Below the pieces are notes generated by a model. The model was given only the letters and a program-made list of their open reading frames with translations. It was not told the DNA's origin and did not search any database. 37,044 nt of DNA. Source: a virus. Positions 27,579 through 36,672 of the stretch are shown in pieces. The DNA is taken from positions 1 through 37,044 of IMG/VR virus record IMGVR_UViG_3300031280_000007. One strand, given 5' to 3'. Positions within the stretch are counted from its first letter, which is position 1. Every line of letters starts with the position of its first letter. The translations under genes and the position numbers were made by a program.

Positions 27579-27599
27579 CGAATAAAAGCCAATAGTTAA

Positions 27600-27640
27600 G
27601 AGAGTACCTAGACAGACGAGAGAGCCAGATATTTTGAGAG
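27600..27640 (+). repeat. GAGAG-NRCC-N9-GAGAG repeat, cluster 1 (2 units)
   Basis: Two overlapping perfect units start at 27600 (GAGAG-TACC) and 27618 (GAGAG-AGCC), so three GAGAG boxes stand exactly 18 bases apart (27600, 27618, 27636). They lie just upstream of promoter P3. The rule is the same in the larger clusters further along the plus arm, always in plus orientation. Confidence 0.8.
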
Positions 27641-27663: not shown

Positions 27664-27691
27664 TTGACATATACTAAAAACATGTTATAAT
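27664..27691 (+). promoter_or_regulatory. Strong early promoter P3
   Basis: TTGACA and TATAAT, 16 bases apart with a TGT extension. Upstream is TAATTACCAAAAAACAC, the box shared with P1, P2 and P4. Transcription would start near 27698 and run straight into the structured RNA at 27728-27821. Confidence 0.85.
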
Positions 27692-27727
27692 ACAATTAGT
27701 TTTAGAAGGAGAAGAGAAAAAAAGAAT

Positions 27728-27821
27728 AGTCCCGTTGTTGGTTCTCGGATAGATGCTAACCTTCAGTTCAGAGCTTTTCTTTGAGATCAGCGGAAGGTTA
27801 GATGTTTTCCCCAACGGGACT
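27728..27821 (+). ncRNA. Structured leader or small RNA
   Basis: Two nested perfect stems: AGTCCCGTTG with CAACGGGACT (27728-27737 / 27812-27821) and CTAACCTTC with GAAGGTTAG (27756-27764 / 27793-27801). TTTAAAA follows the outer stem, so it could also terminate. It begins about 30 bases after the P3 start site and lies before the 27901 gene. It may be a stand-alone small RNA or an attenuator leader. No known riboswitch class is recognised. GGA triplets occur in the inter-stem and apical segments. Confidence 0.6.
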
Positions 27822-27900
27822 TTAAAATACTCGCCTGGTTTTAATTGTTAGGCTCTCAGTTAAAAGCTTTGATTTGATCATCGCGGGGAGTCACCGACTG

Positions 27901-29630: not shown

Positions 29631-29697
29631 TTGACAATATTAAAAAGTGTGTTATAATAGGTTTTGTAAGTAAGATAAACTGTCCGATTTGATCGGA
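29631..29697 (+). promoter_or_regulatory. Strong early promoter P4 with operator-like repeat
   Basis: TTGACA (29631-29636) and TATAAT (29653-29658), 16 bases apart with a TGT extension, preceded by ATAATTACCTAAAATTAC as in P1-P3. Just after the expected start site is TCCGAT-TTG-ATCGGA (29683-29697), a perfect 6-bp inverted repeat that could act as an operator or a 5' hairpin. The next gene starts 23 bases later. Confidence 0.78.
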
Positions 29698-29719: not shown

Positions 29720-29956
29720 ATGGAACCAACTTTATCAAATGACTTTACCCCTTCCCCTTTTTTTGATTGGTACGACTGGGAGCATCACGAAGACGATTGG
29801 ATACACGTTGAAGATGACCTTGATTATCCGTTAGACGCCTTCCAGCTCGCCATTGGTTTTGACGAAGCGGATAGCTCCGAGATTGGCTTTTATGCCAGTG
29901 TTTGGATTGAAGAAAATTATAAAAATTTAAAATTAGATGAATGCCAAATACGCTGA
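29720..29956 (+). CDS. Highly acidic small protein, DNA-mimic candidate
   Basis: 78 residues, driven directly by P4, with GAGG ten bases before the ATG. About a third of residues are Asp or Glu, with many Trp, Tyr and Phe (FFDWYDWEHHEDDWIHVEDD). That composition is typical of DNA-mimic proteins such as anti-restriction factors, though acidity alone does not prove it. The first unit of the big GAGAG cluster begins at its stop codon. Confidence 0.62.
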   Translation: MEPTLSNDFTPSPFFDWYDWEHHEDDWIHVEDDLDYPLDAFQLAIGFDEADSSEIGFYASVWIEENYKNLKLDECQIR

Positions 29957-30355
29957 GAGCGCCAAAGATATAGAGAGTAAAGCCATCTGTAGAGAGAGAG
30001 CCGGATACGATGAGAGAAAAAACCTGTCAACCTGAGAGAACCAAGAAAAACGAGAGAAAAAACCTGTCAACCTGAGAGAACCAAGAAAAACGAGAGCAAA
30101 AACCTGTCAACCTGAGAGAACCAAGAAAAACGAGAGCAAAAACCTCTCAACCTGAGAGAACCAAGAAAAACGAGAGCAAAAACCTCTCAACCTGAGAGAA
30201 CCAAAAGAGATGAGAGTTAAAACCTATAAAATAGAGAGTACCGTAGGAATTGAGAGGGATTAAACCTATAGAATGGAGAGCGCCTAGACAAAAGAGAGTT
30301 TAAAATAACGAATAATGAAAACCTATAAAATAGAGAGTACCGTCAAGACCGAGAG
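29955..30355 (+). repeat. GAGAG-NRCC-N9-GAGAG repeat, cluster 2 (10 units)
   Basis: Ten perfect units start at 29955, 29994, 30034, 30074, 30114, 30154, 30194, 30234, 30276 and 30333. Within every unit the two GAGAG boxes are 18 bases apart. Four of the units (30034-30154) sit in a 40-bp tandem repeat (GAGAGAACCAAGAAAAAC, then GAGAG and a CAACCT end). The NRCC box is AACC, TACC, CGCC or AGCC. All units are in plus orientation. The cluster ends 26 bases before the Transposase_20-like gene. It contains no frame. Confidence 0.92.
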
Positions 30356-30381: not shown

Positions 30382-31494
30382 ATGATCGAAGAAAACACAT
30401 TTATTGAGAAAATAAGCAATGAAGCCATTCAGGGACTGCAAAGCGAAGAAATTAGACTCGTCGTCGATAATTATTACCGCATGCAACATCATCGCCTACG
30501 TCTTGAAGCACAAATGCGAGCGCTATCTCCTTCTTTCAAAGAACAATTAAAAATGATGGAGAAAAACCCTGAGTTAAAAGAATGCCCCCCGCTTGCCTTA
30601 ACGCTTTTATCCAAGACTTCCCACGTTTTTAAACGTGAGGAGAAATTTACCGCCAATATTTTATCGCGTTGGGTAAAATCTCATCCGAGGGCGAAAATTT
30701 TATGCGAAGCTGTCGGAGTGGGGCATATTCTAGCGGCTGGCTTAGTAGCGCACGTTAATTGGTCAATGGTTTGTACAGCTGGTAAGTTATGGTCATTTTG
30801 TGGTTTAAACCCTGAAAGCGAATGGAAGAAAGGCGAAAAACGCCCGTGGAACGCCCATCTCAAACAGCTTTGTTTTTTAATCGGTGAAAGTTTTGTCAAA
30901 CAAAAAAATCGAGAAAATGACGTCTATGGCAAAATTTATCAAAAGCGCAAGGACTGGGAAAACGCACGCAATGAAGCTTTAACCGCCAGTTATCCTGAAG
31001 CGCGACCCTTATTAGCCACGCTGAAAGAAACACAAGACGCTGTGAAAAGAGAAAAAATATATAAAGAACTTAAAACCAAATACGGCTTTATGCGCCCGGC
31101 GCATATTCATGCCCGCGCCAAACGATTTGCCGTTAAGCTTTATTTAGCGGATTGCGTTCACTTTTTGGCCGATGAAGGATTGCTTGAAAATTTACCCAAT
31201 CCATTTTACCCCATGACGGGGAAAATGTACCTCGATAAAAATGTAGACACCTTCGAATTAAGACATTTTAATGGGGAAGAGCAGGTCTCTACCACGCGCG
31301 GATGGCAATCGCTTGTGGTATGGGCAACTGAGATTTTTAAGACGAAAAAAACCGTGTTCTCTGAGAGTACCGTAAAAAAGGAGAGAAATGCCAACGAAAT
31401 GGAGAGTACCGTACTGAGGGAGAGAAAATCCAAAAAAGAAACAACGAATAAGAAAAACCGATTTAAAAATAAACGTTTGGCAAAACGACAATAA
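30382..31494 (+). CDS. IS110-type Transposase_20-like protein without the DEDD domain
   Basis: 370 residues. Residues 108-170 read like the C-terminal domain of IS110-family transposases: a helix-hairpin-helix CEAVGVGHILAAGLVAHV, then KLWSFCGLNPESEWKKGEK and a LKQLCFLIGES helix, then YGKIYQKRK and a HIHARAKRFAVKLYLA end. IS110 enzymes have an N-terminal RuvC-like DEDD domain. Here the first ~100 residues are helical and show no such motifs. A Ser in PESE may stand for the catalytic Ser. The last ~50 residues are encoded by GAGAG repeat units. Flanked on both sides by repeat clusters. Confidence 0.65.
   Translation: MIEENTFIEKISNEAIQGLQSEEIRLVVDNYYRMQHHRLRLEAQMRALSPSFKEQLKMMEKNPELKECPPLALTLLSKTSHVFKREEKFTANILSRWVKSHPRAKILCEAVGVGHILAAGLVAHVNWSMVCTAGKLWSFCGLNPESEWKKGEKRPWNAHLKQLCFLIGESFVKQKNRENDVYGKIYQKRKDWENARNEALTASYPEARPLLATLKETQDAVKREKIYKELKTKYGFMRPAHIHARAKRFAVKLYLADCVHFLADEGLLENLPNPFYPMTGKMYLDKNVDTFELRHFNGEEQVSTTRGWQSLVVWATEIFKTKKTVFSESTVKKERNANEMESTVLRERKSKKETTNKKNRFKNKRLAKRQ
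31363..31424 (+). repeat. GAGAG repeat, cluster 3a, inside the gene end (2 units)
   Basis: Perfect units at 31363 (GAGAG-TACC to 31385) and 31402 (GAGAG-TACC to 31424) lie within the C-terminal coding part of the Transposase_20-like gene. The repeated ESTVKKER / ESTVLRER peptide is a direct consequence. The 18-bp step within units is kept although the codons are used for protein. Confidence 0.85.
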
Positions 31495-31505
31495 CCACAT
31501 ACTCA

Positions 31506-31633
31506 GAGAGTACCGTAAAAATTGAGAGAAATAACGTTTATTACACCTCATATAAATGAGAGCGCCTTAACAAGAGAGAGAATAATCATTAACAATTAAC
31601 CGTAAAAATTGAGAGAACCTTGAAAAAAGAGAA
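31506..31633 (+). repeat. GAGAG repeat, cluster 3b (2 perfect and 2 partial units)
   Basis: Perfect units start at 31506 (TACC) and 31558 (CGCC). A partial unit at 31593 keeps AACC and the second GAGAG at 31611. A further GAGAG-AACC at 31611 is followed 18 bases later by GAGAA (31629). The stretch has no gene and ends just before the next gene's ribosome site. Confidence 0.82.
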
Positions 31634-32061: not shown

Positions 32062-32250
32062 ATGCTTGTATTGACACGCAAACCACATGAAAACGTGATT
32101 ATCACCACCCCTGACGAAACTATTACCGTGAGAGTATTGCGCATTGAAAAAGGAACGGTACGCCTTGGCATTGACGCCCCTCCGGAAGTGATCATTGATC
32201 GTGAAGAAATTACCAAAAAGAAAGAAATTGCCAATCAATTTAATAGGTGA
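32062..32250 (+). CDS. csrA: CsrA-type post-transcriptional regulator
   Basis: 62 residues, the size of host CsrA/RsmA. It begins MLVLTRK, continues with VRVLRIEKGTVRLGIDAP and ends the core with DREEI, the complete family signature. The RNA-contacting Arg6 and the second Arg (Arg47 here, Arg44 in E. coli) are both present. CsrA binds GGA in loops of messenger leaders and represses or stabilises them. GAGGAG lies nine bases before the ATG. It leads the group with exonuclease and RecT. The GGA-containing repeated leaders at 24920 and 25760 are possible targets. Confidence 0.93.
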   Translation: MLVLTRKPHENVIITTPDETITVRVLRIEKGTVRLGIDAPPEVIIDREEITKKKEIANQFNR

Positions 32251-35754: not shown

Positions 35755-36279
35755 ATGATCGCAAAACCGATGTTGCATCCCCTCATTCACCAAGAACGGC
35801 AACGTATTGGAAAATTAATTGCCCAAAAACGGGTACAAAAAGGGCTATCTTTACGCACTATGGCAATGCGTTTAAAAATGAGTCATAACTATATCCATCT
35901 CCTAGAGAAGGGATATTGTAAAATCTCTTTAAAAGCAGCTAAGCGTTTAAGTCGCCTTTTTAAAATTCCATTTGAAGAATTATATTGGGGAGAAGGAAAA
36001 AATAATTATTGGCATCGGCTACAATTAGGAAAAGAGTTAGTCCTTCAACGCATCAGCCAAGGATGGAGCGTTGAAAAGATAGCAGCGCTTTTGAATGAAA
36101 AAGTAAAAACAGTCTATACGGTAGAAGAAGGCTATTTATTTGTCCCCTTAGCCAATATTGATCGCTGGAGCGAAATATATCGATTACCATTGCATGTTTT
36201 ACGAGGAGATTACTTTAAAGAAAATATGACTAACCACATAAAACGAGAGAACCAGAAAGTGGAAGAGAATAAACAATAA
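35755..36279 (+). CDS. Regulator with two XRE HTH domains
   Basis: 174 residues. The first HTH domain spans about residues 18-78 (KRVQKGLSLRTMAMRLKMSHN, then LLEKGYCKISLKAAKRL and IPFEELYW), a typical XRE domain. A second, weaker copy covers about 89-152 (QRISQGWSVEKIAALLNEKV, then VEEGYLFVPLANIDRW and LPLHVLRGDYF). Two domains in one chain would suit two direct half-sites. A later ATG (35770) is possible. The last ~12 codons run into the GAGAG repeats (KRENQKVEEN). Confidence 0.78.
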   Translation: MIAKPMLHPLIHQERQRIGKLIAQKRVQKGLSLRTMAMRLKMSHNYIHLLEKGYCKISLKAAKRLSRLFKIPFEELYWGEGKNNYWHRLQLGKELVLQRISQGWSVEKIAALLNEKVKTVYTVEEGYLFVPLANIDRWSEIYRLPLHVLRGDYFKENMTNHIKRENQKVEENKQ

Positions 36280-36672
36280 TAAATACCTTGCTACCTGAGA
36301 GAGCCAGATGAGAAAAGAGATAATAACCACATTAAGCGAGAGAACCGTAACCGGTGAGAGAATAATAACCACTTCTATTGAGAGAACCGGAGCCATCGAG
36401 AGAACCGTAACCGGTGAGAGAATAATAGCCACATCTATCGAGAGAACCGTAGCCAGCGAGAGAATAACAAGTAATAATAACCATTTATAGAGAGAGAGCC
36501 ACATTTATAGAGAGAGAGCTAAGATGATTAAAGAGTACAATTCACTTAATGCGGTATGAGGATTGAGAGATCCTAAAAAATAAAGTAAAACCAGAGTTAG
36601 AGAGAGTACCTCAATATTGGAGAGAAACCATATAAAAACCATCCATAAAGAGAGAACCAGAAGGTAAGAGAG
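36245..36672 (+). repeat. GAGAG-NRCC-N9-GAGAG repeat, cluster 4 (7 perfect, 2 degenerate units)
   Basis: Perfect units start at 36338, 36380, 36398, 36440, 36492, 36602 and 36650. Degenerate ones at 36245 and 36297 keep GAGAG-NRCC but end in AAGAG, still 18 bases on. The last unit (36650-36672) ends immediately before the ATG at 36673. CCGTAACCGGT appears twice as the filler. A 29-bp copy of exonuclease-gene sequence (36522-36550) lies between units, with an 11-codon frame ATG to TGA. The 60-codon plus frame here is repeat-coded and not supported as a gene. Confidence 0.9.

What the first reader, a model, noticed from the sequence alone, without database searches (positions are those of the whole stretch)
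30382..31494. Stand-alone IS110-type Transposase_20-like protein flanked by the repeat clusters
The protein has the helix-hairpin-helix and following region of IS110 enzymes but I see no DEDD RuvC-like N-terminal domain. IS110 enzymes act with structured bridge RNAs encoded at the element ends. Here the domain lies between two clusters of a repeat. It may be a domesticated recombinase acting on the repeats, or an RNA- or DNA-binding remnant.
Basis: partly seen in the sequence, partly recalled or inferred. Interest (0 to 1): 0.75.

Follow-up and report, generated by a model that had tools for sequence, protein, structure and literature searches.

The report
Phage RNA-guided DNA-binding (TIGR-TasA) system
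A phage gene that looks like a broken transposase is instead the single protein of a recently discovered RNA-guided DNA-binding system, and the repeats around it are its list of guide RNAs, laid out in an unusually loose way.

Summary
ORF 30382-31494 is a stand-alone IS110/Transposase_20-like protein with no DEDD/RuvC domain, and GAGAG repeats lie on both sides. It is not a domesticated recombinase, and the repeats are not its substrate. It is TasA, the nuclease-less effector of a TIGR-Tas system (Faure et al. 2025, PMC12045711), and the repeats are its guide array. Sequence profile and predicted fold place it nearest to TasH and TasR, ahead of IS110; the IS110 catalytic-serine loop is absent. 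The repeats parse into 24 units of box C (RCC) - 9-nt spacer A - 9-nt loop repeat (GAGAGNRCC) - 9-nt spacer B - box D (GAGAG), all on the gene's strand, in four places; shuffles give almost none. A scan of 2.9 million viral contigs for the repeat pattern alone found four true arrays, each beside a relative of this protein. Three features are unusual: edge linkers of 12-83 nt where the published dual-repeat arrays have 8-12 nt; four dispersed arrays; units lying inside the 3' ends of genes. No natural target was found. In relatives, guides change far faster than the tas gene or the repeats. RNA processing and DNA binding are inferred from characterised homologues.

The parts
30382..31494 (+). 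tasA: 370-aa Nop-domain (IS110 C-terminal-like) effector, no nuclease domain
30430..31281 (+). conserved Nop/Tas core (about aa 17-300): coiled coil plus helix-hairpin-helix RNA-binding part
   Evidence: alignment A3 of 49 Tas; structural alignments cover model residues about 17-312
31282..31491 (+). C-terminal tail (about aa 301-370) aligned to no relative in A3; partly a translation of two array units; codon-position GC pattern weaker in aa 321-371
27589..27640 (+). TIGR array 1: one unit plus an extra spacer (3 spacers)
29944..30355 (+). TIGR array 2: 10 units; starts inside the 3' end of ORF 29720-29956; three identical units and one single-base variant at 30023-30182
31352..31628 (+). TIGR array 3: 5 units; the first two lie inside the tasA reading frame; last box D degenerate (GAGAA)
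36234..36672 (+). TIGR array 4: 8 units plus one extra spacer; the first unit lies inside the 3' end of the HTH_3 repressor-like ORF 35755-36279; two box D degenerate (AAGAG)
29631..29658 (+). 12/12 sigma-70-like promoter with TG before the -10, placed to transcribe ORF 29720-29956, array 2, tasA and array 3 (consensus match only)

Best explanation
This is a phage-encoded TIGR-TasA system. Most likely steps: (1) the arrays are transcribed on the + strand with their neighbouring genes [inferred from strand and a perfect promoter match]; (2) the transcript is cut in the variable edge linkers into guides of about 36 nt that run from box C (RCC) through spacer A, the 9-nt loop repeat and spacer B to box D (GAGAG); that core is 35 nt whatever the edge length [anatomy shown; processing inferred from TasA/TasR/TasH work in PMC12045711]; (3) a TasA dimer binds one guide, each protomer reading one C/D box pair [inferred from the TasH/TasR fold match]; (4) the two spacers pair with opposite strands of an adjacent 18-bp DNA target, which TasA binds and bends but cannot cut, because it has no nuclease domain [inferred]; (5) bound TasA probably blocks transcription or replication of a competing mobile element, or alters host DNA [speculative; no target found]. 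The phage's own genome is not targeted above chance [tested].
For: Profile of 49 Tas vs PDB sequences: TasR 9mty 6.8e-28, TasH 21kl 3.2e-16, IS621 1.5e-5, ISCro4 2.4e-4; the window protein alone hits only TasR (4.4e-5) and TasH (1e-4) at E<=1. Fold: TasH Z 17.2 (3.8 A, 218 aligned), TasR Z 15.5 (2.9 A, 192), ISCro4 13.3, IS621 13.2, Nop56/58 6.5. The paper's own SpTasH phage, Salicola CGphi29, is a tblastn relative. Array grammar: 24 units, loop repeat 9 nt throughout, 49 of 50 parsed spacers 9 nt (offset 9 stands alone at 47 against at most 6 for other offsets up to 26, with the second peak at 27). Array-pattern scan of viral contigs: 9 stretches, of which 4 (L011, L012, L013, L015) are true arrays and exactly those encode a 38-40% relative beside the array. 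50 of 65 Tas loci exceed all 200 shuffles for a CC-N8/10-motif array within 1 kb. No self targets: 24 spacer pairs, best-mismatch distribution equal to mispaired decoys.
Against: No RNA data: neither expression nor 36-nt processing could be tested. Edge repeats of 12-83 nt leave the 8-12 nt range given for dual-repeat arrays, and some boxes are degenerate. The protein sits on a very long branch (4.83 changes per site) and departs from residues conserved in at least 90% of relatives (for example at 11, 68, 84 and 126), which also fits decay. 15 of 65 relatives show no array by the same test, 10 of them with at least 1 kb of sequence on both sides. No target found by any search.
Confidence: 0.9

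Rival explanations
1. A decaying TIGR-TasA locus: once functional, now drifting, so that edges lengthen, boxes erode and arrays are read into neighbouring ORFs.
For: Long branch; departures at conserved positions; variable edges and degenerate boxes at array ends; weak coding signature in the tail.
Against: The ORF is intact and the codon-position GC pattern is kept in the core. Loop length and spacer length stay constant while only the edge varies, which is not what uniform decay gives. Tandem near-identical units point to recent array growth.
Confidence: 0.12
2. A domesticated IS110-type recombinase that acts on the repeats as DNA sites.
For: Transposase_20 similarity.
Against: No RNase H-like domain. 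The IS110 serine loop falls in a 6-residue gap in the profile alignment and no serine is conserved there in the 49 Tas. The repeats carry variable 9-nt spacers in fixed register, which a recombination site does not need.
Confidence: 0.02
3. The GAGAG repeats are operator or iteron-like DNA sites for TasA, the HTH repressor or the CsrA-like protein, and their neighbourhood with tasA is incidental.
For: Repeats lie in gaps between early genes; HTH_3 and CsrA proteins are encoded nearby.
Against: All exact units are on one strand and none on the other. Scanning for the pattern alone recovers Tas relatives. Spacer variability with constant spacing.
Confidence: 0.02

Closest known systems
TIGR-TasA with dual-repeat array (for example FpTIGR of Flavonifractor plautii, PMC12045711, text read)
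   Same: Solo Nop-domain effector beside an array of two alternating repeats with 9-nt spacers, upstream and downstream of the gene
   Different: Edge is a 12-83 nt A/T-rich linker, not a fixed 8-12 nt repeat; four dispersed arrays; units inside the 3' ends of ORFs; very divergent protein
IMG/VR TasA loci L011, L012, L013, L015
   Same: GAGAG box D, CC(A) box C, array beside tasA; 38-40% protein identity
   Different: Strict 18/36-nt period (GAGAGATCCA-N8-GAGAGAACCA-N8 in L012); proteins of 273-288 aa without the long C-terminal tail
TasH of Salicola phage CGphi29 (PDB 21kl, 9vzx, 9w02-04)
   Same: Best fold match, Z 17.2; array downstream of the gene
   Different: TasH has an N-terminal HNH nuclease; the window protein has none
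TIGR stem-loop arrays (Gordonia phage Morrissey, Fromanvirus)
   Same: Two spacers framed by C/D-like boxes per unit; variable sequence in the edge position
   Different: Those edges are palindromic stems (fold z -7.5 and -4.4); the window array is weakly structured (z -1.9)
IS110/IS1111 transposases (IS621, ISCro4)
   Same: Nop-like Tnp domain, Z about 13
   Different: They have a DEDD RuvC-like domain, a catalytic Ser and one bridge RNA

Membership tests
TIGR-Tas (TasA) | Nop-type RNA-binding domain of the Tas/IS110 kind | tested here: met
   Profile vs PDB: TasR 6.8e-28, TasH 3.2e-16; fold Z 17.2 and 15.5
TIGR-Tas (TasA) | No HNH or RuvC nuclease domain (TasA rather than TasH/TasR) | tested here: met
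   All-helical model, Nop match begins at about residue 17; no nuclease family in Pfam
TIGR-Tas (TasA) | Neighbouring array of units with two spacers of about 9 nt framed by repeated box C/D-like motifs | tested here: met
   24 units on one strand, 49 of 50 spacers 9 nt; chance 0.92 vs 47 observed
TIGR-Tas (TasA) | Array processed to 36-nt tigRNAs bound by Tas | not testable with these tools
   Needs RNA sequencing; the box C to box D core is 35 nt by sequence
[quoted passage not shown]
   No natural target found
canonical dual-repeat TIGR array (subtype) | Both repeats 8-12 nt and fixed within the locus | tested here: not met
   Loop 9 nt throughout, edge 12-83 nt
stem-loop TIGR array (subtype) | Palindromic, stem-forming edges | tested here: inconclusive
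   Edge flanks pair only slightly better than mispaired ones (-1.47 vs -0.83, sd 0.29 kcal/mol); array fold z -1.9, 4 of 100 shuffles as good
IS110/IS1111 transposase | N-terminal DEDD RuvC-like domain | tested here: not met
   No beta strands of 3 or more residues in the model
IS110/IS1111 transposase | Conserved catalytic serine in the Tnp domain | tested here: not met
   Serine loop is a gap in the Tas alignment; only S170 is widely conserved (47 of 49) and it lies elsewhere. The place of the IS110 serine is recalled, not from a call
IS110/IS1111 transposase | Element ends with a single bridge RNA | not tested
   No search for element ends or a bridge RNA was made; Rfam found no family at its gathering score in the window

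The most novel reading that the evidence does not exclude
Two linked readings. (a) The window shows a loosened TIGR architecture: self-contained guide modules (box C - A - 9-nt loop - B - box D) separated by free-length linkers, scattered over four sites and written into the 3' ends of protein genes, so that messenger RNAs double as guide precursors. (b) TasA phages renew their guides on a fixed scaffold by an unknown diversifying process. In IMG/VR contigs L054/L058 (tas DNA 98.7% identical) matched units differ at 43 of 176 spacer bases but 3 of 177 repeat bases, with gains and losses of about one unit. In L050/L051 (tas DNA 95.6%) 0 of 15 spacers is kept. In six Fromanvirus phages 3 of 72 spacer columns but 135 of 186 scaffold columns are invariant. 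That would make TasA an arms-race system with heritable, fast-changing DNA addresses.
Probability: 0.4. Interest if true: 0.78.

Novelty: new variant of a known kind. Interest (0 to 1): 0.55.

Why it matters
TIGR-Tas was described in 2025, and its authors say that the natural targets, the role of the nuclease-less TasA and the way arrays arise are unknown (PMC12045711, Discussion read). This locus adds a divergent TasA whose guides keep a rigid core with free-length edges, which would separate what the protein needs (boxes, 9-nt spacers, 9-nt loop) from what it does not (edge length). The relatives gathered here show guides changing much faster than the repeats and the tas gene, and point to culturable mycobacteriophages of M. 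smegmatis as a system in which TasA targets could be found by experiment. A gene often annotated 'transposase' or 'hypothetical' in those phages should be renamed.

Tried and rejected
Single-protein search of viral contigs: nothing. A 25-base array pattern: nothing, because the loop and edge were fixed too tightly; the looser pattern worked, and 5 of its 9 hits (L007-L010, L014) are simple tandem repeats (18-nt period in most) without variable spacers or Tas. Distant DNA search in phages and protein search in plasmids: nothing.

Self-targeting: rejected; observed best matches equal mispaired decoys, and 31 exact 9-mer hits vs 29.7 +/- 6.2 for shuffled spacers. Targets among 55 parsed array loci (the parser's list included a few noise loci such as L005-L009): 4 and 4 hits at <=1 mismatch vs controls of 2-6 and 1-6. 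The repeated unit at 30023 in viral contigs: 23 stretches with an exact hit in the inferred orientation, 14 in the opposite one; I take both as near chance, and did not examine the hit sites one by one. Targets of Fromanvirus guides in Bxb1, Lamina13, Che8 and TM4 (50 kb of each): nothing at <=1 mismatch. At <=2 mismatches, 5 vs 0.83 (control maximum 3) in the orientation that I consider wrong; 4 of those 5 are one homologous site counted repeatedly, so I do not claim it (a cruder first pass over two of those genomes, equals its control). The target orientation is my inference from the published 8-nt 3' overhang.

Stem-forming edges in the window array: weak only. Host: not identified; portal hits shown are 20-25% identical, mostly Vibrio and other proteobacterial phages. 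Sister phages through the RecE-like gene: none. Rfam: nothing in the window or in the hairpin at 27.7 kb.

Caveats on counts: the 65 loci include near-identical contigs (for example L062-L064, L025/L026, L028/L029), so they are not independent; L015 stands for L022 and L023 for L011 (same contigs). Of the 15 misses, 5 have under 100 bases downstream. In one search arrays were parsed with one mismatch allowed in box D. The spacer counts use different parsers and differ.

Full report
OBSERVATION. The ORF at 30382-31494 (+, 370 aa) is real. Pfam's only match is a sub-threshold Transposase_20 (14.7 bits vs 21.3; aa 105-146); PHROG phrog_4285 'transposase' matches strongly (3e-31). The record is a virus with P22-like podovirus structural genes: terminase, portal. 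The surrounding repeats are far beyond chance: GAGAGNACC 19 vs 0.39 expected, CC-N9-GAGAG 47 on the gene strand, 0 on the other, shuffle mean 0.92 and maximum 3.

WHAT THE REPEATS ARE. Parsing shows a strict grammar: RCC - 9-nt spacer - GAGAGNRCC (9 nt) - 9-nt spacer - GAGAG, then a linker, then again. There are 24 units in four places: 27589-27640 (1 unit plus a spacer), 29944-30355 (10), 31352-31628 (5) and 36234-36672 (8 plus a spacer). The short repeat is 9 nt throughout; 49 of 50 spacers are 9 nt. The offset profile is flat except for 9 (47) and 27 (26), the half unit and the whole unit. The long repeat ('edge') is A/T-rich and 12-83 nt: 12, 13 (six times), 15, 30 in array 2; 12, 77, 24, 26 in array 3; 25, 14, 15, 15, 25, 83, 21 in array 4, which also has one 9-nt repeat leading to an extra spacer. 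Array 2 starts inside the end of ORF 29720-29956, the first two units of array 3 lie inside tasA, and the first unit of array 4 lies inside the HTH_3 repressor-like ORF 35755-36279. Units at 30023, 30063 and 30103 have identical spacers and the next one differs by a single base, so the array seems to grow by unit duplication with drift.

HOW IT WAS IDENTIFIED. tblastn relatives in named phages include Salicola phage CGphi29, mycobacteriophages (74 of 81 records; the six that I opened are Fromanvirus), Gordonia Morrissey and Arthrobacter Talia1610. Reading their flanks showed similar paired 9-10-nt variable segments framed by short motifs, as a bare array (Salicola) or in hairpin loops (Gordonia, Mycobacterium). 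This matches TIGR-Tas (Faure et al. 2025, PMC12045711: abstract, main text to the end of the Discussion, sections 24, 44 and 49 read). The paper's SpTasH is the Salicola protein.

TESTS OF THE IDENTIFICATION. (i) A scan of 2.9 million viral contigs with the window's array grammar and no protein information gave 9 stretches. Four are true arrays with changing spacers and exactly those four encode a relative (38-40% identity, E 6e-50 to 5e-47) beside the array; the other five are simple tandem repeats. (ii) A search with those five proteins gave 63 viral loci and 2 metagenome-assembled genomes; 50 of 65 exceed 200 shuffles for an array signal within 1 kb, and 5 of the 15 misses have under 100 bases downstream. 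(iii) The profile of 49 Tas finds TasR (6.8e-28) and TasH (3.2e-16) before IS621 (1.5e-5) in the PDB; the window protein alone finds only TasR and TasH. (iv) The AlphaFold2 model (pLDDT 83, pTM 0.74) is all-helical; Foldseek ranks TasH then TasR, VIA-align gives TasH 17.2, TasR 15.5, IS110 enzymes about 13 and Nop56/58 6.5. Helical models can reach Z 13 by chance arrangement, so the ranking and the sequence match carry the argument. (v) The IS110 serine loop is a gap in Tas and no serine is conserved there.

EDGE AND LOOP. In relative L012 the array begins right after the tas stop codon with a truncated GAGAGATCCA and ends with another, so that repeat is the edge. By position the constant GAGAGNRCC of the window is the loop and the variable linker is the edge (inference). 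The published repeats are 8-12 nt. Among the 43 loci that could be parsed strictly, the window is the clearest case of a GAGAG array out of the 18/36-nt register (0.55 in register; the relatives L011, L012, L013 and L015: 0.97-1.0). Low values elsewhere come mainly from other fixed periods (34 or 35 nt) or noisy motifs. The window array is weakly structured (z -1.9), unlike Gordonia (z -7.5) and Mycobacterium (z -4.4).

MECHANISM. Shown here: protein family and fold, no nuclease domain, guide grammar, one-strand arrays, a 35-nt box-to-box core, no self targets. Inferred from homologues: processing to 36-nt guides, dimeric TasA, two-strand DNA recognition, bending without cutting. Speculative: purpose. 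Spacer turnover in relatives argues for changing targets such as competing elements rather than a fixed host gene.

GUIDE TURNOVER IN RELATIVES. L054/L058: tas DNA 98.7% identical; aligned arrays differ at 43 of 176 spacer sites and 3 of 177 repeat sites, with insertions or deletions of about one unit. L050/L051: tas DNA 95.6%, 0 of 15 spacers kept where about 70% would survive at the tas rate; L024/L028: 94.9%, 0 of 18. Six Fromanvirus phages: 3 of 72 spacer columns invariant vs 135 of 186 scaffold columns; unit 1 of Buttons equals HarryOW while unit 1 of Lamina13 equals BPBiebs31, so units are reshuffled. The tas gene is not annotated at the corresponding place in Bxb1 (vs 115; read from annotation only). 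The words turnover, hypervariab-, diversif- and 'closely related' do not occur in the main text of PMC12045711; its supplements were not readable here. Paper searches for TIGR-Tas, tigRNA, TIGR arrays, TasH, TasA/Nop domain, TIGR systems/TasR and mycobacteriophage/IS110/stem-loop found that paper, one review (PMC12385481, passages seen), passing mentions and unrelated papers.

DIVERGENCE. The window protein is the longest branch of the tree (4.83, with no supported grouping) and carries a tail of about 70 aa without counterpart, partly the translation of two guide units. This fits either rapid evolution or decay; I favour the former because the core grammar is intact, but cannot exclude decay.

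VERDICT. TIGR-TasA, identity near certain; loosened-edge, dispersed variant. Filed under TIGR-Tas but not under its canonical dual-repeat subtype, whose edge length is not met.

Noticed in passing
window 27664-27850: A perfect sigma-70-like promoter match (12/12, TG before the -10) followed by a long hairpin (GTCCCGTTG...CAACGGGAC enclosing a second stem) with no Rfam match; not significantly more stable than shuffles (z -1.43). Possibly a small RNA.
   Followed up: partly
window 32062-32250: Phage-encoded CsrA (Pfam 3.8e-18) between tasA and the RecE/RecT-like recombination genes.
   Followed up: no
L054 6780-7422 vs L058 from 4806: Homologous TIGR arrays whose spacers differ at 24% of sites while repeats differ at 2%: guides change in place and by gain or loss of about one unit.
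   Followed up: partly
L002 2896-3232 (minus strand), L116-L120 about 862-1200: Fromanvirus mycobacteriophages carry a stem-loop TIGR array upstream of a TasA gene annotated transposase, HTH or hypothetical; stems and boxes conserved, loop guides hypervariable and reshuffled.
   Followed up: partly
L071 5824-8124: A Tas gene of 766 codons interrupted inside the Nop domain by what looks like an intein (CCHPTT... to ...VHNC); recognised by eye, not tested with a profile.
   Followed up: no
L002 1365-2896; L116, L117: In these Fromanvirus loci the TasA gene lies next to a Cas4/RecB-like exonuclease gene; in the window a RecE-like exonuclease lies about 1 kb downstream. Whether this link is functional is unknown.
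   Followed up: no
L005 2739-3944: Streptomyces phage TurkishDelight hit looks like a full-length IS110 transposase, useful as an outgroup (its completeness is my reading).
   Followed up: partly
window 1-37044: The record looks like a nearly complete P22-like podovirus of unknown, perhaps proteobacterial host: portal 20-25% identical to phages of mostly 34-39 kb.
   Followed up: partly
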